Virus record (IMG/VR): IMGVR_UViG_3300010885_020237 | Location: 29,678 to 93,677 of that record | Strand: one strand, 5' to 3' | Source: a virus | DNA: 64,000 nt | In this document: positions 2,541-28,245 of the stretch, piece by piece | How the letters are laid out: every line of letters begins with the position of its first letter | How positions within the stretch are numbered: the first letter of the stretch is position 1 | The notes under the pieces: model-generated | Databases searched by the model: none | Seen by the model: only the letters and a program-made list of their open reading frames with translations | Told to the model about the DNA's origin: nothing | Position numbers and translations under genes: made by a program

Positions 2541-3206
2541 TTAGGTGTAGTTCCATTTATATCCTCCTGATATTCTATTGTTTTTGATAGCCACGTGAAT
2601 ATTAGAATTGTTTACACCGATAAAATCTGCAGCTTTTTTTAGCGATTGAAATGTACTAATTATCTCCATCGTATCTTTATTAAGCATATTCACACTTTTT
2701 ATATTATGAGCAAGTTTTCCGACTTTAGATTCTCTTAATCTTCTTATACCGTCTTCTGTCATATTATGAGGTTTTCTTAGTTTCTGTTTTTGTTCCTCTG
2801 TTCTTTTTTGACCTTTAACAGCTAAGCCTACTTTTGCAGCATGTTCTTTACTTTTTTTCTTTCCTTTTAACGCTTTAGATATTGCTTTAGAGTGAGCTAG
2901 TCTGGCTTCTTCATAACATCTTGAAGATATTATAATCCAATGTTCTTTAGGCGTTGATCCTCTACCATTACACATTCTCCAAAAAGAAAAAGCTCTAGAT
3001 TGAATATTTTCATCTAATCTATATAAAAGCCAATGCGCAATAAAATGCTCTCTTGCTGTTAATCTAACTATATTTTCTTCAATATCTAACCCATTTTCTG
3101 ATTTAGGCTTTATATGATGCCTTTCGAAGTAAGGTAAAGTTTTATATTCTCTATTTTTAGCTTTATCAATTAGGTTATCGTAATGTTTTCTGTAATCCAC
3201 TTTCAT
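2541..3206 (-). CDS. HNH homing endonuclease with NUMOD modules
   Basis: Free-standing mobile endonuclease that would cut an allele lacking it and copy itself by repair. The HNH core lies at residues ~25-60: FERHHIKPKS, then the Asn-containing ENIVRLTAREHFIAHWLL. Two NUMOD3-like DNA-contact repeats follow (SKAISKALKGKKKS and HAAKVGLAVKGQKRTEEQ, ~108-145). The C-terminal NUMOD1-like helix-turn-helix (TFQSLKKAADFIGVNNSNI, ~186-215) ends in GGYKW. It sits directly downstream of the DNA polymerase gene. The ATG begins immediately after an ATATTTATT copy. The reading frame is intact. Confidence 0.9.
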   Translation of the reverse strand: MKVDYRKHYDNLIDKAKNREYKTLPYFERHHIKPKSENGLDIEENIVRLTAREHFIAHWLLYRLDENIQSRAFSFWRMCNGRGSTPKEHWIIISSRCYEEARLAHSKAISKALKGKKKSKEHAAKVGLAVKGQKRTEEQKQKLRKPHNMTEDGIRRLRESKVGKLAHNIKSVNMLNKDTMEIISTFQSLKKAADFIGVNNSNIHVAIKNNRISGGYKWNYT

Positions 3207-3241: not shown

Positions 3242-5554
3242 CTAATGTCCTTCAAGCCAGTTTTTGGCTAAAGATGGTACAGCAATTAATGGGACGTCCA
3301 ATTTGGTTGTATTCTCCATTTTATCCTGTATAATAGCTGCGGCTTCTGCTGCTCTTTCATATTCTACTTCTATGATTAACTGATCGTGGATTTGCGCGCA
3401 GACCCAACCTTTAATGCCTTTTGCGATAAACTCTCTATTTATATGTATAGCTGCTCTATTTACTATAGATGCAGCTAAACCTTGTATTTGTACATTACAG
3501 CTATTATTTAGTCCATTTTTATAGTCTCTATATAATTTAGTTATTTGATCTTCTCCAAATTCATAAGATAGTTGTTTTTTTATATTCCAATCTAATAAAG
3601 AATCCCCTAATTCAGCATATATTTCTTTTACTTTAGGCAAGTGTCTTATTCTACCTACTTGAGTTTTTATATAACCAAATTCTTTTACATATTTAACTGA
3701 ATTCTCCATCCATTTTTTTAATTTTGGAAATCCATTTAAATAACCGTCTACTAATTTTTTAGCATCTTTAGTAGGAATATCTAAATTTTTACCTAAAGCA
3801 TACGGTGACATTCCATAAGGAATACCTAGAGCATAGGCTTTTGCTTTATTTCTAATTTTTGGTTTGTGTTTTCTTAAAAAATTATCAGCTTTTTTATCTG
3901 GAGAATAGTCGTATAATTTTTCTGTTTGAATAGCTATTGTACAATAGAAATCCCATCCATTTTTAAAGATATCGATTAATCCTATATCACCTGAGACATG
4001 TGCAAATACACTCGGCTCTAGAGAAGAGTAATCATCATCGACAAATATATTGTGTTCATCAGGAATAAAAAATGCTCTAACTCTATTATTATACTCTAAT
4101 ACAATTGGATCATCATCGCCTTCTTCTTTTGGTCTAGGTAACTGTTGAGCATCAGATCCGTAGCGGCCAGAAACTGTACCATGTTGTTTGTAACTAAAAT
4201 AGTAACGGCCATCTTCTTGAGCGTCTAAGAATCTTTCCACATAAGTAGATTTAATCTTTAATAATTTATTATAGATTCTTAAGTTTCTTGCCCATTCTTC
4301 TGTATCTCCAATTAATTGGATCATGTCATCATCAAATTGTGGCTTTCCACCTTTTGTAGTAGATAATGCTTTTATGCCCAAAGCTTTGAATGCAATTTCA
4401 CCTAATTGATCTTTAGACTGTATGTTAAACCAATTACCGTCATTAGATTCTTTCCATAGTTTTAATTGTATTTTTACAATTTGATCCTTATCAAGCATTT
4501 GAGCATCACCGTGAAGTAAGAACTGTTTTACTGCGCTATCTGGGATTCTTAAAATATTTGCATTAGCTATATTGTACTTACCACTTTTCTCTGACTTTGG
4601 AAAGTCTATACCGCTTTGATTGATTAATTCTATGGCAAATGTTCCTCTATTGTTTGCGGGGAATTCCTGCGCCGCTTTTAACATGATCCAGTTCTTTACT
4701 TCAGCGTAACTAAGTAACTGATCCATAACCTTAGTTCTGTGATCCTCTAGAGCTTGTGTAACTTCTTCTTTTGTTCTACGAATAAGATCCATATCCAATT
4801 TAACACCTATACTTTCCATTGGAATGGTTACCTCTTTGTAAAGTGGCATTACTTCATCTTCAAAAAAGAAGGCTTCTAATCCCTGATCGTAAAGGTCTTT
4901 TATAAAGTGATTGTATACTCTAAGTGTTAAATCTGTATCTGCTGCAGCATATTCGGCTAATATGTTAATATCAGCTTTCCATATCTCGTAATTTTCTCTT
5001 GTAACAGAACCACCATTTTCTTTGATCGATGATTTTAGCGCAAGCTGCTCTTCATTGGCAGCTTTTTCTATATCAAGTCCAAGTTCTGTTTGAATCATTT
5101 TAGCAATACTTTTTAATCCAAATGGAGAATTGGATCCAAATCCAGCTCCTTCTTCATTTACAGTATGAACTAATAACATTGTATCAGCGTGTAAGGAATC
5201 TAACAAATCAATGCCGTAAAAACACTTAATAAATCTGCCATCGAAAGAAAAATTATGAGCGATTAATTTTTTACCATGAAGTAAATTAAGTATTTTTTTA
5301 GCTATATCATGACATGATACGCCGTCTACAGTATTTTCTATAAGAGAATTTGATTCTTTATCATATAATAGTGTAGGCAAATAATATCCATAGCCCTCTA
5401 TTGCTGATATAGACAGACCTATTATTTTTCCTTTTCTAGGATTTAAACTGTTAGTTTCAGTGTCTATTGATATTATGTCATAACTTTTTATATGGTCAAC
5501 TAGATTTTTGATATCTTCTTTTGTTGAAACATGTACATACTTTTTATTTATCAT
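3242..5554 (-). CDS. polA: DNA polymerase I, family A, with 3'-5' exonuclease
   Basis: Presumed replicative polymerase with proofreading. The exonuclease domain shows Exo I DTET (31-34), Exo II HNFSFD (100-105) and Exo III YAAAD (202-206). The polymerase shows SGRYGSDAQQLP (462-473), motif A DYSSLEP (catalytic D508, E513), motif B with R568, K572, Y580, and motif C HDQ (H723, D724). There is no N-terminal 5'-nuclease domain; that activity is in the separate gene at 11135-12163. Two motif residues are unusual: Leu576 at the position of E. coli Phe762, and Gln725 where HDE is usual. The gene is flanked on both sides by homing endonucleases, and the GIY-YIG stop overlaps its start by 11 nt. It replaces the family B polymerase expected in a T4-like phage. 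Confidence 0.96.
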   Translation of the reverse strand: MINKKYVHVSTKEDIKNLVDHIKSYDIISIDTETNSLNPRKGKIIGLSISAIEGYGYYLPTLLYDKESNSLIENTVDGVSCHDIAKKILNLLHGKKLIAHNFSFDGRFIKCFYGIDLLDSLHADTMLLVHTVNEEGAGFGSNSPFGLKSIAKMIQTELGLDIEKAANEEQLALKSSIKENGGSVTRENYEIWKADINILAEYAAADTDLTLRVYNHFIKDLYDQGLEAFFFEDEVMPLYKEVTIPMESIGVKLDMDLIRRTKEEVTQALEDHRTKVMDQLLSYAEVKNWIMLKAAQEFPANNRGTFAIELINQSGIDFPKSEKSGKYNIANANILRIPDSAVKQFLLHGDAQMLDKDQIVKIQLKLWKESNDGNWFNIQSKDQLGEIAFKALGIKALSTTKGGKPQFDDDMIQLIGDTEEWARNLRIYNKLLKIKSTYVERFLDAQEDGRYYFSYKQHGTVSGRYGSDAQQLPRPKEEGDDDPIVLEYNNRVRAFFIPDEHNIFVDDDYSSLEPSVFAHVSGDIGLIDIFKNGWDFYCTIAIQTEKLYDYSPDKKADNFLRKHKPKIRNKAKAYALGIPYGMSPYALGKNLDIPTKDAKKLVDGYLNGFPKLKKWMENSVKYVKEFGYIKTQVGRIRHLPKVKEIYAELGDSLLDWNIKKQLSYEFGEDQITKLYRDYKNGLNNSCNVQIQGLAASIVNRAAIHINREFIAKGIKGWVCAQIHDQLIIEVEYERAAEAAAIIQDKMENTTKLDVPLIAVPSLAKNWLEGH

Positions 5555-6188
5555 AAATGAATTTTACCTTTATTTTATTTTTATTCCACGTAGAAATTGT
5601 AGCTGACGATCTATTAAAAAATTCAGCTGCATCTTGTATAGTTAAGAAAACAGTGCCAGATTCTATACACAGTACTTTTTGCGCTCTACCATTAGAGGAT
5701 CCTGATATCTTTTTGGATTGAGTGATCTTTCTTTCATTAGTCCATAAATCCTGAAATTTTTTCTTATAATCAGCTGTTGCATATTTTATTTTTAATTTAT
5801 CGCCTAATTCACGAGCGATTTTTTTATCTTTCATAGGATTATGAAATCTCATAAATTGTGATTGTTCTGGTCTTTTTTTACCAAACATTATACATTTGTC
5901 TCCCGATCCAGATCCACTTGCTGATGCACATTGCATTGAGTAATATGGCTTTTTAAAAAGTTTATCCAATAAAAGCTGCTCTTGTAAATACGCCTCTTCT
6001 CTAGTTGCATATTCATTTAATATTTCGTATTCAAACATATTATATTTTAAATACGCTCTTTGCATTATAGAATTTCCATGTGTACCTTTAGTTAATTCTC
6101 GAAAATGATCTTTCATTCTCCTTTTTAAATTATTAGTAGATCCAATTTGTTTCCATGGACCTATTTTAATTTGATATACTACATTCAT
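5544..6188 (-). CDS. GIY-YIG homing endonuclease (copy 1)
   Basis: Site-specific mobile nuclease. I start at the ATG of MNVVYQIKIG (6188); the in-frame TTG at 6206 lies inside an RNA helix and is unlikely. The N-terminal catalytic module is diverged: VVYQIKIG then KQIGSTNNLKRRMKDH, where Gln replaces the Tyr of YIG but the R and H of the family are present, and the Glu of EEAYLQEQ follows. NUMOD3-like NPMKDKK is central, and a NUMOD1-like HTH (LTIQDAAEFFNRSSATI) is C-terminal. The stop overlaps the polA start by 11 nt, so translation may be coupled. A structured RNA lies 12 nt upstream. Confidence 0.85.
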   Translation of the reverse strand: MNVVYQIKIGPWKQIGSTNNLKRRMKDHFRELTKGTHGNSIMQRAYLKYNMFEYEILNEYATREEAYLQEQLLLDKLFKKPYYSMQCASASGSGSGDKCIMFGKKRPEQSQFMRFHNPMKDKKIARELGDKLKIKYATADYKKKFQDLWTNERKITQSKKISGSSNGRAQKVLCIESGTVFLTIQDAAEFFNRSSATISTWNKNKIKVKFIYDK

Positions 6189-6199
6189 AAAATAAAAAT

Positions 6200-6289
6200 G
6201 GTTCAAAAAAACAAAGGAGCTCTAACCTTCCTAAGTTTAAATGAACCAATAAGTTTATAACAGATAACTAGTTAGAGTAGTTTCTATCC
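6200..6289 (-). ncRNA. kissing-loop RNA element A, leader of GIY-YIG copy 1
   Basis: Read on the minus strand. Hairpin 1 has an outer helix GGAUA/UAUCU (plus 6285-6289 with 6262-6266), a GAAA-type asymmetric bulge, and an inner helix ACUA/UAGU closing the 7-nt loop CUCUAAC (6271-6277). Hairpin 2 is GGUUCA/UGAACC (6242-6247 with 6200-6205), and its large loop contains GUUAGAG (6220-6226), the exact complement of the hairpin 1 loop. Element B at 13820-13911 has the same order of helices with different bases in the inner helix, hairpin 2 and kissing helix, so the fold is supported by compensatory change. It ends 12 nt before the GIY-YIG start. I match it to no named family. It may control translation of the nuclease or be a mobile RNA partner. 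Confidence 0.72.
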
Positions 6290-6291
6290 AT

Positions 6292-6300
6292 TATAAATAT
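6292..6300 (-). promoter_or_regulatory. ATATTTATA motif before RNA element A
   Basis: Lies between the 62-aa gene stop (6308) and the first base of RNA element A, only about 2 nt from the RNA's outer helix. The same arrangement occurs before element B. Confidence 0.4.
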
Positions 6301-6307
6301 GCAATCT

Positions 6308-6496
6308 CTATTCTTTTTTACTGTATGGAAATAATTCGTTTAATTTATCCTGTCTTCTTTTACAACCGCAATCTTCTTCTCCTAGCGCTTTAGCTATTTT
6401 ATCTGCTAATACATCTATTTTTAGCGCATGAGTTATTTTTGCGATAGTATCACCTAGACCTTTAGGTTCTAAATTATCTTCATCATTTTTTTTCAT
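6308..6496 (-). CDS. small phage protein with CGCKRR motif, 62 aa
   Basis: I start at the ATG giving MKKNDEDNLEPKGLGD; upstream extension would only overlap the previous gene further. Residues ~13-62 carry GLGDTIAKITHALKID, then ADKIAKALGEEDCGCKRRQD and LNELFPY. This compact helical pattern with a CxC pair recurs in small hypothetical proteins of many phages as far as I know, but I know no function. Its start codon lies inside the 3' end of the preceding membrane-protein gene (14-nt overlap containing an A8 run), which indicates translational coupling. Confidence 0.75.
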   Translation of the reverse strand: MKKNDEDNLEPKGLGDTIAKITHALKIDVLADKIAKALGEEDCGCKRRQDKLNELFPYSKKE

Positions 6497-6689
6497 CTTC
6501 AATTTGCTTTTTGGCAATAACTTCACCAAATTTAGTACTAATTGCAATGGTTATAATACCCATTTGTTGCCACATTGATTCTAAATCTTTTTTAAGTTTA
6601 TTAATTAACCTAAATTGATATACTTGCATCACCATTAATAAGGTAATAATAAGCAAGTAAAAATTCTCGAGTGTAATATTAATTGTCAT
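6483..6689 (-). CDS. small single-pass membrane protein
   Basis: About 68 residues, starting MTINITLENF; an upstream in-frame TTG would add two residues. A hydrophobic segment FYLLIITLLMVMQVYQF (~residues 10-26) is followed by a charged, coiled-coil-like tail (LINKLKKDLESMWQQ) ending EDEKK. The topology is N-out or N-in, undetermined. It overlaps the 62-aa gene by 14 nt at an A8 run. The size and topology would fit a holin- or spanin-like accessory, but no motif proves lysis function and no lysozyme gene is adjacent. Confidence 0.65.
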   Translation of the reverse strand: MTINITLENFYLLIITLLMVMQVYQFRLINKLKKDLESMWQQMGIITIAISTKFGEVIAKKQIEDEKK

Positions 6690-12165: not shown

Positions 12166-13233
12166 TTATTCGTTTTCTGATGTATCGAAAATGTCTTTTG
12201 CGTCTGTGTCTTGTTCTTCAACAATATCAAAGTCTGCTGATCCAAGTACTTGTAACCACTGATGAGAGTACTGCTTCTTATATTTTTCTAACGCAGAAGG
12301 TTTATCATCAATAAATCCATGAACTGTCATGATTAATTTATTCGCAGCAGTAACTCCTGTGATGTGATTCTTATCGCAAGAAAGTTTAGTTCTTTTAGCA
12401 AATTCAACATCTTTGCCATTTTTGCTGGCTTTGATTTTATTAGTCCCGGAATTTGTAACATTTCCAAAAGTAATAATAAGCGATGAATCAAAAAACATTG
12501 TGTCACCTCCTTTATTCTTCATCTTTGGTTGACCCATAATATGTTCAGCTTTTGCAACCCAAACTTTATTGATCGCTACAAGAGTGTTTGTATAAGGTTG
12601 ACTCTCCTTTCTTGACATTACAATCTTTTGATTAACAAAATTACCGAACTGTTGAGACATTGCACCGGCATTCCATTCGTTGTTATTCGTAGATTTTTCT
12701 ATTGACATCTTACATGGAATAGATCCAACAGAATCCCAAAAGAAACATAGGTCATAAGGTAAATTTCCTTTCTTTTGTTCGTCTAAAATGTCTAATACAA
12801 AAGCAGATACATCTTCAATACAATTTAATTTCTCTCTATCGATGTATACAAAGAATCCTGTGTAGTCATTAACTACTCCATCAGCATCTGCAACTTCATC
12901 AAATTTAAGTCCCATTTCTCTAGCGTGGTCCCAACTCCATTTCATCTCTGTGATAATGAATACTGGTAATATGCCCATCTTTTGAGCATTAACAGCAGCT
13001 TCTAATAGTGCAGTTGTTTTACCTGTATCAGAATGACCTCTTAAAAGAGTAATGTGACCAACTGGAATTCCAGGAATTTGAAGAGCGTCTTGAAATGCTG
13101 GAGATAGTGGTATCCATGAAGCGTCTTTAAATTTTACAGATGTCGAAGATAAGTTCTTTGATTTTTTAAATTTGTCTAAACTAAATTCAGACTTGATGGC
13201 ACTTGATATTTTGCCAGTGAGTGCTTTCGCCAT
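12166..13233 (-). CDS. uvsX: UvsX-like RecA recombinase
   Basis: Strand-exchange protein for recombination-dependent replication and repair. Walker A GHSDTGKTT is at 66-74, Walker B-like LCFFWDSVGS near 163-172, and the L2-like region and NKGGDTMFFDSSLI follow. The acidic C-terminus (EEQDTDAKDIFDTSENE) resembles the regulatory tails of RecA/UvsX proteins. The 355-residue length fits. It lies between a GIY-YIG gene (14 nt upstream) and RNase H. Confidence 0.93.
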   Translation of the reverse strand: MAKALTGKISSAIKSEFSLDKFKKSKNLSSTSVKFKDASWIPLSPAFQDALQIPGIPVGHITLLRGHSDTGKTTALLEAAVNAQKMGILPVFIITEMKWSWDHAREMGLKFDEVADADGVVNDYTGFFVYIDREKLNCIEDVSAFVLDILDEQKKGNLPYDLCFFWDSVGSIPCKMSIEKSTNNNEWNAGAMSQQFGNFVNQKIVMSRKESQPYTNTLVAINKVWVAKAEHIMGQPKMKNKGGDTMFFDSSLIITFGNVTNSGTNKIKASKNGKDVEFAKRTKLSCDKNHITGVTAANKLIMTVHGFIDDKPSALEKYKKQYSHQWLQVLGSADFDIVEEQDTDAKDIFDTSENE

Positions 13234-13247
13234 AACTAAATTTTTAT

Positions 13248-13808
13248 TTAATGTAATGCTTTATTTTTTCTTGAAGAAGGGTTTTTTTGCGGTCCTCTTG
13301 GGCCTCTCATTTTTTGCTTCGTTTCTTCTGTGTGAGCATTTCCTATATGCGCTTTAGACATATTTAATTTAGATTGTTCGGTATGAATTCTGCCTTTATG
13401 TTTTTCAGAAATTTTTAAACGAGTTTCTTTTGAACAAGGCGGATATTTTTTGCCTTTATTTCCGGAGCCGCTATTATTTCCTTTTGCTGATAGACGCATT
13501 TTATTTTTTGATTCGTTAGAAAAAATAAAATTAATCATGCCTTCTCCTCCGTCTGTAAGATTTACTAGAGAACCGGTTCCGATATTTTGTCTGCCTAGAC
13601 TTTTAATAAGTTCGATTTCTATTATTCCAGAATCTTCCCAAGACAAATCTTCATAAAGAATATCAATAAAATAGCCTACTTTATTAACTATATTATGCCA
13701 ATGTACATTTCTATCAGCTCTTGAAAATGCTCTTTTTAAAGTTTTTCCTCTACCTATGTAGAAAATTTCATTTGTGTCTTTTCTTCTATGCTGATATATT
13801 ATAGCCAT
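13248..13808 (-). CDS. GIY-YIG homing endonuclease (copy 2)
   Basis: Mobile nuclease. The catalytic module is near canonical: IIYQHRR, FYIGRG, KRAFSRADR, then EDLSWEDSGIIEIELI carrying a Glu. Three NUMOD3-like basic repeats follow (NESKNKMRLSAKGNNSG, KETRLKISEKHKG, EQSKLNMSKAHIG). The first two-thirds closely resembles copy 3 at 27667-28245, so they belong to one subfamily distinct from copy 1. It lies 14 nt before uvsX. It has structured RNA B as its leader, 11 nt before the ATG. Confidence 0.9.
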   Translation of the reverse strand: MAIIYQHRRKDTNEIFYIGRGKTLKRAFSRADRNVHWHNIVNKVGYFIDILYEDLSWEDSGIIEIELIKSLGRQNIGTGSLVNLTDGGEGMINFIFSNESKNKMRLSAKGNNSGSGNKGKKYPPCSKETRLKISEKHKGRIHTEQSKLNMSKAHIGNAHTEETKQKMRGPRGPQKNPSSRKNKALH

Positions 13809-13819
13809 AAAATAAAAAA

Positions 13820-13911
13820 GAACTCAGAGGATTCAAAGATCGCGGAATGACCAATGTTTCGTGAGTTCAATAAATTTATTATAGATAGTTAATTCCGCTA
13901 ACTTTCTATCC
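13820..13911 (-). ncRNA. kissing-loop RNA element B, leader of GIY-YIG copy 2
   Basis: Same fold as element A at 6200-6289. The outer helix GGAUA/UAUCU (plus 13907-13911 with 13883-13887) is identical. A GAAA bulge follows, then the inner helix GUUA/UAAC closing the 7-nt loop GCGGAAU (13892-13898). Hairpin 2 is GAACUCA/UGAGUUC (13862-13868 with 13820-13826), and its loop contains AUUCCGC (13842-13848), fully complementary to hairpin 1's loop. Linkers match element A in length and composition (UAAUAAAUUUAUU here, UUAUAAACUUAUU there). Most kissing-helix positions differ from A while pairing is kept, which is strong evidence for a selected tertiary fold. Confidence 0.72.
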
Positions 13912-13913
13912 AC

Positions 13914-13922
13914 AATAAATAT
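13914..13922 (-). promoter_or_regulatory. ATATTTATT motif before RNA element B
   Basis: Lies between the SSB gene stop (13934) and RNA B and abuts the RNA's outer helix, exactly as before element A. Confidence 0.4.
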
Positions 13923-13933
13923 GTTCTCCATTC

Positions 13934-14755
13934 TTAAAATGAAAACAATTCATCGATTTTGGAATCGAGATCTGTTTTCGTCGTACTTAATGTGAATGGT
14001 TTCGCAGCTGGTGCTTCTTTCTCCCATGGTAAATCTCCAATAGGATCAGTTTTTACTACAACTGAATCAGCATTTTGCTTGATCTCTTCTTCAGGATTTA
14101 AGTGCGACATTAATGCGCTTTTCATCTCTTCATAAGTGTAACGTTTAAACTGAGTCATTGGATCTGGTTGAGTAGTCAACCACTGTTTAACTTTTGCAGC
14201 ATCATCAGATAGAGGAGTAATTTTAGTTCTTACTCTTACGCTAGACGTGTTGTACGATAAACCAGTCGTTTCTTTTCCTTGTACATCAATAGTGATATCA
14301 CGACCTTCAATGGGATCTGTGAAATCTCCTACGTCCTCATCTTCAGCTAATGCTAACAAATCCATGTAGACTTGTTTACCAAACCCCCATAAAAGAACGC
14401 CTTTGTCTTCTTCGCCTCTAACGATAACTGGTACATAGATTCTCATCTTTGGTTCCAATTTTTTAGCTAGCTGCCAATCTTCTTTAACTGAAGACTTTCT
14501 TAGTCCTTGAGAAAACTCAACGATAGGATCTTTTTCGCCATAATTTGACAAAGAGATCATGGTGTTTTTATTTCCAATTCCATAATGGAAATAAAGCTCC
14601 TTAAAAGGATTGCTTTTTGTGTACATCGAAGGTACAATACGAACTAAATGTTTACCCACTGTTGGGCCCCAAAGCGTTTTTGCCAGTTCGCCTTTCTGGC
14701 CGCCTCTTGGATTTTGTAACGTAGCGAGTCTTTGCTTTAATGCAGATATATCCAT
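13934..14755 (-). CDS. gp32: single-stranded DNA-binding protein, T4 gp32-like
   Basis: Coats ssDNA and coordinates replication and recombination proteins. A basic N-terminal segment (LKQRLATLQNPRGGQK) resembles the gp32 cooperativity region, a core OB-fold-like domain with WGPTVGKHLVRIVPS and YFHYGIG follows, and the tail is acidic, ending in TKTDLDSKIDELFSF, as expected for the partner-binding C-terminus. The 273-residue length is near T4 gp32 (301). I do not see the full Cys/His zinc cluster of T4 gp32. Its neighbours are uvsX and the helicase. The leader carries a perfect inverted repeat (14781-14798), which recalls gp32 autogenous control. Confidence 0.88.
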   Translation of the reverse strand: MDISALKQRLATLQNPRGGQKGELAKTLWGPTVGKHLVRIVPSMYTKSNPFKELYFHYGIGNKNTMISLSNYGEKDPIVEFSQGLRKSSVKEDWQLAKKLEPKMRIYVPVIVRGEEDKGVLLWGFGKQVYMDLLALAEDEDVGDFTDPIEGRDITIDVQGKETTGLSYNTSSVRVRTKITPLSDDAAKVKQWLTTQPDPMTQFKRYTYEEMKSALMSHLNPEEEIKQNADSVVVKTDPIGDLPWEKEAPAAKPFTLSTTKTDLDSKIDELFSF

Positions 14756-27666: not shown

Positions 27667-28245
27667 CTAGTTTATTTGTGTTTTTAATAATTTCGTTACG
27701 TAAGCTTTAGATTTATTTAAATATTTTGCTAAAGCCGTCTGTGATTCAAATTCAATTTTGTCGTATACAACCTTTAATCTTTTTGGACTAGCTTTATCTT
27801 TCCAATATCCTGGTTTTCCATAAAGAGGATTTAATTCTCCAACTCTACCAAAACAAGGATTTTTTTCTCCTTTAGAAGCCAAACTCTTTTTTCTTTTTGA
27901 CTCTTCAGTGTGAATTTGATTTTTAGCGGCTAATCTACATTTGTCTTTAGTTTCTTTTGTGTGTCTAAATCCAACTGTTCCTTCTCCACCATCAGTCAAA
28001 TTAACCAATGTTCCAAGTCGTAAATCTCGTCTACCGTAAAGAGCTATAAATTCTTTTTCTTTTTCTTTTGCTTGTTCCCAAGTTAAGTCTTCAAATAGAA
28101 TTTCAATTTCGTAACCTTTTGCGGCGATATTCTTCCAGATTCTAGTTCGATTTGTTTTATGATATGCTCTAGATTCGCTTTCTCCTATTCCTATATAAAA
28201 AACCTCTTGTTTGTCCGTTCTTATGTGTCTGTATAATATTGCCAA
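27667..28245 (-). CDS. GIY-YIG homing endonuclease (copy 3)
   Basis: Same subfamily as copy 2: AILYRHIR, FYIGIGESESRAYHKTNRTR, EDLTWEQAKEKEKEFIALYG, LVNLTDGGEGT, then NUMOD3-like repeats (HTEESKRKKSLASKGEKN, LNPLYGKPGYWKD) and a C-terminal HTH (FESQTALAKYLNKSKAYV). It is inserted in the late sheath-tube region, 6 nt before the tube gene. Unlike copies 1 and 2 it has no structured RNA upstream; only a few bases separate it from the ATATTTATA motif. Confidence 0.9.
   Translation of the reverse strand: MAILYRHIRTDKQEVFYIGIGESESRAYHKTNRTRIWKNIAAKGYEIEILFEDLTWEQAKEKEKEFIALYGRRDLRLGTLVNLTDGGEGTVGFRHTKETKDKCRLAAKNQIHTEESKRKKSLASKGEKNPCFGRVGELNPLYGKPGYWKDKASPKRLKVVYDKIEFESQTALAKYLNKSKAYVTKLLKTQIN

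What the first reader, a model, noticed from the sequence alone, without database searches (positions are those of the whole stretch)
6200..6289. Kissing-loop RNA (element A) upstream of a GIY-YIG homing endonuclease
On the minus strand, hairpin 1 (GGAUA/UAUCU, GAAA bulge, ACUA/UAGU) presents the 7-nt loop CUCUAAC. Its exact complement GUUAGAG lies in the loop of a second hairpin (GGUUCA/UGAACC). The element ends 12 nt before the endonuclease start. A second, sequence-different copy with the same fold precedes GIY-YIG copy 2. I recognise no named RNA family. It could gate translation of the nuclease and of the essential gene behind it, as T4 does with structured I-TevI leaders, or be an RNA that moves with the nuclease.
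Basis: partly seen in the sequence, partly recalled or inferred. Interest (0 to 1): 0.88.

Follow-up and report, generated by a model that had tools for sequence, protein, structure and literature searches.

The report
Kissing-loop leader RNA of phage genes
A folded RNA, held together by two hairpin loops that pair with each other, sits just in front of selfish DNA-cutting genes and of replication-starting genes in many phages that probably infect Bacteroidota; its fold is conserved while almost every paired letter changes, and it matches no RNA family in Rfam.

Summary
Elements A (6302-6186, minus) and B (13924-13806, minus) share a fold: hairpin P1, a linker, hairpin P2, a U-tract and AUG. 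Two 7-nt loops are exact Watson-Crick complements, all seven pairs differing between A and B.

About 27 different kissing pairs occur. A covariance model built without the kissing pairs still shows them (44 of 48 copies complementary over 7 nt, against 21 of 2120 mismatched combinations). Models of either class find the other, so this is one family, absent from Rfam 15 and from about 790 Bacteroidota genomes sampled by pattern.

The RNA travels with the nuclease: relatives with empty sites lack both, at three sites. It is not nuclease-specific.

Best reading: a portable promoter-plus-leader cassette that restrains expression of the next gene. P2 plus U-tract resembles an intrinsic terminator placed on the start codon, clamped by the kissing loops. 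The fold and its mobility are shown; the regulatory step is inferred.

The parts
6293..6300 (-). ATATTTAT, promoter-like motif at the 5' border of element A
   Evidence: TATTTAT is about 12-fold enriched upstream of window genes (11 seen, 0.83 expected), most often 24-29 nt before the start codon; ATATTTAT is strand-biased, 18 of 21 on the coding strand.
6254..6297 (-). Hairpin P1 of element A: outer stem UUUAUAAUGGAUA/UAUCUGUUAUAAA, bulge GAA, inner stem ACUA/UAGU
   Evidence: sequence; 13-pair outer and 4-pair inner helix supported on 48 homologues
6271..6277 (-). Kissing loop 1 of A, CUCUAAC
   Evidence: exact complement of 6226-6220; covariation
6246..6253 (-). Conserved linker CUUAUUGG (of AAACUUAUUGG), shared by both classes; it runs into the first bases of P2
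   Evidence: invariant or nearly so in alignments A1 and A9; one kissing-competent copy (L407:3204) lacks it
6200..6247 (-). Hairpin P2 of A: base GGUUCA/UGAACC, AAAC/GUUU, UU/UU internal loop, GGA(A)G/CUCC closing loop 2
   Evidence: P2a: 6 of 6 pairs with double-sided changes, P2b: 4 of 4
6220..6226 (-). Kissing loop 2 of A, GUUAGAG
6189..6199 (-). U-tract AUUUUUAUUUU between P2 and the start codon
   Evidence: U 83-100% at -10 to -6 and -4 to -1 in 49 copies, -3 always U; ordinary genes of this phage are A-rich there
5544..6188 (-). GIY-YIG homing endonuclease A (214 aa, AUG at 6188)
   Evidence: Pfam GIY-YIG 2.9e-7; PHROG homing endonuclease 1.2e-15
5555..6307 (-). Inserted unit A = element A + GIY-YIG A, between a small ORF (6308-6547) and DNA polymerase (3242-5554)
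   Evidence: In about 26 relatives the small-ORF homologue ends 51 nt or less before pol, with neither RNA nor nuclease
13806..13924 (-). Element B: same fold, kissing loops GCGGAAU (13898-13892) / AUUCCGC (13848-13842), U-tract, AUG 13808-13806
   Evidence: 137.6 bits, but B was one of the 9 sequences the model was built from
13248..13808 (-). GIY-YIG homing endonuclease B (186 aa)
   Evidence: 45 phage records with related proteins, annotated as Seg-like or putative homing endonuclease where named; member of the set scanned, where PHROG homing-endonuclease families dominate
13242..13933 (-). Inserted unit B = element B + GIY-YIG B between ssb-like and uvsX-like genes
   Evidence: Relative G001 (about 80% identical DNA) has 37 bp with an ordinary terminator instead

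Best explanation
The element is a cis-acting, portable 5' leader RNA: a promoter followed by a compact two-hairpin fold clamped by a 7-bp intramolecular kissing helix, ending in a U-tract that abuts the start codon. It moves with homing endonucleases as part of the inserted unit; the same RNA also heads replication-initiation genes in other phages. Most likely it restrains and times expression of the next gene. Hairpin P2 plus U-tract acts as an attenuator (a weak intrinsic terminator placed on the AUG), and the kissing clamp fixes P2 as it is transcribed; the U-rich, A-poor start region keeps initiation weak as well. Shown: fold, kissing pairs, one family in two classes, fixed position before the AUG, mobility with the nuclease, promoter-like motifs. 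Inferred: that it acts in cis on expression, that it lowers rather than raises it, and that attenuation rather than pure translation control is the main step.
For: Covariation of every helix and of the kissing helix. The test that was blind to the kissing pairs gave 44/48 copies against 21/2120. Position is fixed: P2 ends about 9-15 nt before AUG in front of non-homologous genes. Position -3 is always U and -10 to -6 is U-rich, where ordinary genes of the phage are A-rich; in Flavobacterium A at -3 promotes initiation (PMC6847099). Class I copies have the phage promoter-like motif at their 5' edge; class II copies mostly follow a Bacteroidota-type TAnnTTTG box. About 50 of 50 class I downstream genes are homing endonucleases. 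Class II genes are unrelated replication initiators plus a methyltransferase, an ATPase-like ORF and HNH genes. Empty sites lack both parts. At the B site the insertion replaced an ordinary terminator. Two copies (G001, L128) sit just behind an ordinary terminator, which implies expression from their own promoter.
Against: No expression data. The generic terminator scan did not flag A or B, because P2 exceeds its loop limit. A pure attenuator would not need a fixed distance to AUG, which argues for an additional or alternative initiation-level role. P2 has internal loops, so its termination strength is uncertain. Promoters are inferred from motif enrichment only; no transcription start was mapped.
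Confidence: 0.62

Rival explanations
1. Pure translational gate: the kissing-clamped fold sits just upstream of AUG and blocks or positions the 30S subunit, as T4 HEG leaders gate translation. No termination is involved.
For: Fixed 9-15 nt spacing to AUG before non-homologous genes. T4 I-TevI, segB and mobE leaders regulate translation, and seg43 of Aeromonas phage 25 has a hairpin immediately upstream of its RBS (PMC2988022). The promoter-like motif lies on the 5' arm of P1, so own-promoter transcripts probably lack the outer stem.
Against: The U-run directly after a G+C-closed stem is the signature of an intrinsic terminator and is needlessly U-rich for these A-rich hosts. The start codon is not paired in the predicted fold.
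Confidence: 0.32
2. The loops also pair between molecules: loop 1 of one transcript can kiss loop 2 of another, making the leader a concentration sensor similar to plasmid copy-number RNAs, with loop divergence keeping copies from cross-talking.
For: Loops are exact 7-nt complements, as in known RNA kissing pairs. No two copies in one genome share a loop (0 of 28 pairs, 3.5 expected, P=0.018; class I alone P=0.07). Class II sits in front of replication initiators.
Against: An intramolecular partner about 50 nt away should outcompete trans pairing. The within-genome statistic is weak and its draws are not independent of phylogeny.
Confidence: 0.1
3. RNAP-modifying antiterminator like HK022 put RNA: the folded nascent leader binds RNA polymerase and carries it through its own or downstream terminators.
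For: Two stem-loops at the 5' end of phage transcripts, close to the promoter, as with putL (about 70 nt, two stem-loops, PMC9378689).
Against: No kissing interaction is mentioned in the held text on put RNA. Here loops and stems drift freely and only short linker and bulge segments are conserved.
Confidence: 0.1
4. A guide or cofactor RNA that works with the encoded nuclease, as OMEGA RNAs do with IscB/TnpB.
For: RNA and nuclease are adjacent, co-inserted and co-lost.
Against: The same loop precedes different nuclease types (CUCUAAC before GIY-YIG A, another GIY-YIG and an HNH; CUACUAC before several). The same RNA precedes replication initiators with no nuclease. By eye, neither loop 7-mer occurs in the empty-site junctions printed.
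Confidence: 0.04
5. A DNA-level palindrome (promoter/operator) with no RNA function.
For: The outer stem of P1 overlaps the promoter-like motif and varies little.
Against: The kissing pairs lie about 50 nt apart in two loops and covary, which only a single strand explains; the sense is fixed relative to the gene.
Confidence: 0.02

Closest known systems
T4-type structured leaders of homing endonucleases (I-TevI, I-TevII, I-TevIII, segB, Aeh1 mobE; Aeromonas phage 25 seg43)
   Same: Structured RNA directly upstream of a phage homing endonuclease, promoter overlapping the structure, presumed to limit expression (PMC2988022)
   Different: T4 leaders are single hairpins pairing a Shine-Dalgarno sequence. 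Here there are two hairpins with a covarying kissing helix, no Shine-Dalgarno, a U-tract next to AUG, one shared family across GIY-YIG, HNH and non-nuclease genes
HK022 put RNA
   Same: Two-hairpin RNA at the start of a phage transcript, close to the promoter (PMC9378689)
   Different: No kissing loop mentioned there; acts on distant terminators; here the terminator-like U-tract is part of the element
ColE1 RNA I/RNA II-type 7-nt loop-loop kissing complexes
   Same: Two fully complementary 7-nt loops; replication-initiation genes in class II (from general knowledge)
   Different: Here both loops lie in one transcript; no antisense RNA seen or tested
HEARO / OMEGA RNAs of IscB-type HNH nucleases
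   Same: Structured RNA adjacent to and mobile with a nuclease gene (from general knowledge)
   Different: Not matched by Rfam; same RNA with unrelated nucleases and with non-nucleases; no guide segment
Riboswitch or attenuator leaders with a terminator expression platform
   Same: Fold followed by stem plus U-tract
   Different: AUG follows the U-tract at once; sequence conservation is low for a ligand pocket

Membership tests
Any Rfam 15 family | Match at or above the curated gathering score | tested here: not met
   Zero matches in the window and in 10 homologous loci; sub-threshold matches in A and B are chance-level
New kissing-loop leader family (this report) | P1 and P2 hairpins with exactly complementary 7-nt loops | tested here: met
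   44 of 48 copies complementary over at least 7 nt, tested on a model blind to the kissing pairs
New kissing-loop leader family (this report) | Both classes recognised by each other's covariance model | tested here: met
   R2 finds class I (E down to 2.6e-7); R1 finds class II (E down to 1.2e-6)
T4-type HEG leader hairpins | Hairpin sequesters the Shine-Dalgarno sequence of the endonuclease | tested here: not met
   No Shine-Dalgarno before AUG; the region is a U-tract, unpaired in the fold
T4-type HEG leader hairpins | Promoter inside the structure so that own-promoter transcripts cannot form the inhibitory pairing | tested here: inconclusive
   Promoter-like motif overlaps the 5' arm of P1; no transcription start mapped
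Intrinsic terminator / attenuator | G+C-rich stem directly followed by a run of U | tested here: met
   P2a closes with G-C pairs and is followed by U-rich 10-11 nt in nearly all copies; predicted energy of P2 -16.9 kcal/mol in A
Intrinsic terminator / attenuator | Transcripts end at the U-tract | not testable with these tools
   Needs in vitro transcription or 3'-end mapping
HK022 put RNA | put sequence and RNA polymerase contact residues | not tested
   No put alignment was compared; the resemblance is two hairpins at a promoter only
OMEGA / guide RNA | RNA tied to one nuclease family and carrying a target-matching segment | tested here: not met
   Shared by GIY-YIG and HNH nucleases and by replication genes; loops not seen in empty sites
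GIY-YIG homing endonuclease (gene A) | GIY-YIG catalytic domain | tested here: met
   Pfam PF01541 2.9e-7

The most novel reading that the evidence does not exclude
A phage-borne RNA expression module with self-specific 'address' loops: each copy's kissing pair is private within its genome, so the leaders can act (or be sensed in trans) without cross-talk. Mobile nucleases and replication initiators have adopted the same module as a dose- or time-dependent switch.
Probability: 0.15. Interest if true: 0.93.

Novelty: new variant of a known kind. Interest (0 to 1): 0.84.

Why it matters
It is a sizeable unlisted structured-RNA family with near-ideal evolutionary support: about 27 different exactly paired loop combinations, two classes, over a hundred stretches retrieved. 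It links two things not usually connected, selfish homing endonucleases and phage replication initiators, through one leader RNA. It makes testable how free-standing homing endonucleases stay harmless in hosts without Shine-Dalgarno control, and it gives a tractable example of a programmable intramolecular kissing clamp set on a start codon.

Tried and rejected
Short pattern ATTTATNNNGGATAGAAA: in the loci retrieved only the window copies were real, the rest chance. Genome-contig scan: 9 hits, all chance on inspection. About 790 Bacteroidota genomes by pattern: 7 hits, none with the fold, close to the control rate. INPHARED phages by DNA: nothing. The nearest named relative, Flavobacterium phage immuto (54% identical polymerase), two Croceibacter phages and Fpv1 have no copy. 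Rfam: none. Guide-RNA and DNA-palindrome readings rejected for the reasons given under rivals. MAFFT on trimmed loop segments misaligned the two classes and was discarded. The first candidate detector had an index error and was rerun.

Full report
What was checked. Copy B lies at 13911-13820 in front of a second GIY-YIG gene. In both, a 7-nt loop in hairpin 1 is the exact complement of a 7-nt stretch 63 nt from the start of the hairpin, and all seven pairs differ between the copies. No Rfam family matches and there is no tRNA. Folding without the kissing pairs already gives z-scores of -3.9 and -3.4.

Setting. The window is part of a 93.7-kb IMG/VR virus record. It carries a family A DNA polymerase, ribonucleotide reductase, a DnaB-like helicase, a 5'-3' exonuclease and a UvsX-like recombinase. 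The nearest named relative is Flavobacterium phage immuto, with 54% identical polymerase. The start regions of ordinary genes are A-rich and show no Shine-Dalgarno consensus, as expected for Bacteroidota (PMC6847099).

Homologues. A GIY-YIG search and two structure-aware DNA patterns retrieved many copies from viral contigs. In the first targeted pattern 22 of 23 stretches were true copies. A covariance model R1, built from nine B-like copies and containing no kissing pairs, found 48 distinct class I copies at E<1e-6. On these, 96.6% of base-pair cells form, 17 of 27 pairs show changes on both sides, and 0 of 500 shuffles reach this. Comparing loop 1 with the interior of P2 for each copy, 44 of 48 are complementary over at least 7 nt, against 21 of 2120 mismatched combinations. 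Counted as a helix, the kissing pairs are 98.2% formed, with 6 of 7 positions changed on both sides. Some copies carry up to 9 complementary nt because the closing stems extend the match.

Second class. The conserved 3' frame AAACUUAUUGG...U-tract led to a second class with a short hairpin 1. It has the same kissing logic (GUAGGAU/AUCCUAC, GUCGGAU/AUCCGAC, GUCAGAU/AUCUGAC, GUACCAG, GUACCAU, GUGAGAU, GUACGAG) and is likewise supported by covariation. The two L354-type rows that seem unpaired are misaligned there; they pair. R2 finds class I copies and R1 finds class II copies, so both belong to one family. Most class II copies carry a TAnnTTTG-like box just before hairpin 1. Counting all variants seen, about 27 different kissing pairs were recorded.

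Downstream genes. After class I, all of about 50 distinct copies are followed by GIY-YIG or HNH homing-endonuclease ORFs, a few of them truncated or broken. Of the 48 proteins of 40 aa or more that were scanned, PHROG families named homing endonuclease, HNH endonuclease or intron-like endonuclease dominate, with Pfam NUMOD, HNH and GIY-YIG domains. After class II come several unrelated replication-initiation families (DUF1376/primosomal, DnaD-like or replisome organiser, Lin1244_N, O-like), and also a DNA methyltransferase, an ATPase-like ORF and HNH genes. One contig (L430) has both an initiator copy and an HNH copy, with different loops.

Mobility. Three filled/empty comparisons show that RNA and nuclease come and go together. 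(i) Unit B (13242-13933) is absent in relative G001, which has 37 bp with an ordinary terminator between ssb and uvsX. (ii) G001 carries an RNA+HNH unit after its groEL-like gene where the window's phage has none. (iii) Unit A is absent in about 26 polymerase relatives, in which the small upstream ORF ends within 51 nt of the polymerase start. The HNH gene 2541-3206 is also an insertion but carries no such RNA, so the RNA is not obligatory for a free-standing nuclease in this phage.

Position and signals. In class I the phage's promoter-like word TATTTAT (12-fold enriched upstream of genes, mostly 24-29 nt before AUG) sits at the 5' border of P1. In G001 and L128 an ordinary terminator precedes the unit, which suggests transcription from its own promoter. 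Between P2 and AUG lies a U-tract: position -3 is always U, and -10 to -6 and -4 to -1 are 83-100% U, whereas ordinary genes of this phage are A-rich. In Flavobacterium, A at -3 promotes initiation (PMC6847099), so this start region looks weak by that rule. The spacing of P2 to AUG is nearly fixed before non-homologous genes.

Mechanism. The data fit a cis-acting leader cassette that keeps expression of the next gene low or timed. I favour attenuation at the U-tract, stabilised by the kissing clamp, with a possible contribution at initiation. Both rest on sequence signals, not on expression data. T4 provides precedent for structured leaders on homing endonucleases (PMC2988022), but its defining feature, a hairpin pairing the Shine-Dalgarno sequence, is not met here. 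It works like those leaders in purpose, but is not a member of that set. The same loops before different nucleases and before replication genes argue against a guide-RNA role.

Orthogonality. Among 12 contigs with several copies, no two copies share a loop (0 of 28 pairs; 3.5 expected; P=0.018; class I alone P=0.07). This is suggestive only, because copies are related and the pools are approximate.

Limits. Copies found by kissing-aware scripts are selected for kissing; the unbiased figures are those, in which the model ignored the loops. A few family members have lost or replaced hairpin 1 (L315, L370). The host is inferred to be Bacteroidota from promoters, start regions and the nearest named phage. 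The literature search covered only the held open-access library; no paper on this element was found there.

Noticed in passing
window 2541-3206 (-): HNH homing endonuclease directly after the DNA polymerase gene, without the leader RNA; the insertion is absent in relative G001. In other relatives (L311, L317, L450, L455, L460) an RNA-headed nuclease sits near the polymerase gene, in several directly after it.
   Followed up: partly
window 27667-28245 (-): Third GIY-YIG-like ORF, with ATATTTAT nearby (28264-28257) but no kissing-loop leader.
   Followed up: no
L315 (minus copy) and L370 (minus copy): Family members whose hairpin 1 is deleted or replaced while P2 and U-tract remain; natural experiments for what P1 contributes.
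   Followed up: no
L407:3204-3301: Second class II copy that lacks the conserved AAACUUAUUGG linker yet keeps a 7-nt kissing pair (GTACGAG/CTCGTAC), in front of a DUF1376-like gene.
   Followed up: no
L342:1300-1398 and L407:1954-2051: Class II leaders now in front of a DNA methyltransferase and an ATPase-like ORF instead of an initiator, as if genes had been inserted directly at the leader's start codon.
   Followed up: no
window 13934-14755 / 12166-13233 junction: The nuclease insertion at the ssb-uvsX junction replaced an ordinary intrinsic terminator that relative G001 still has.
   Followed up: partly
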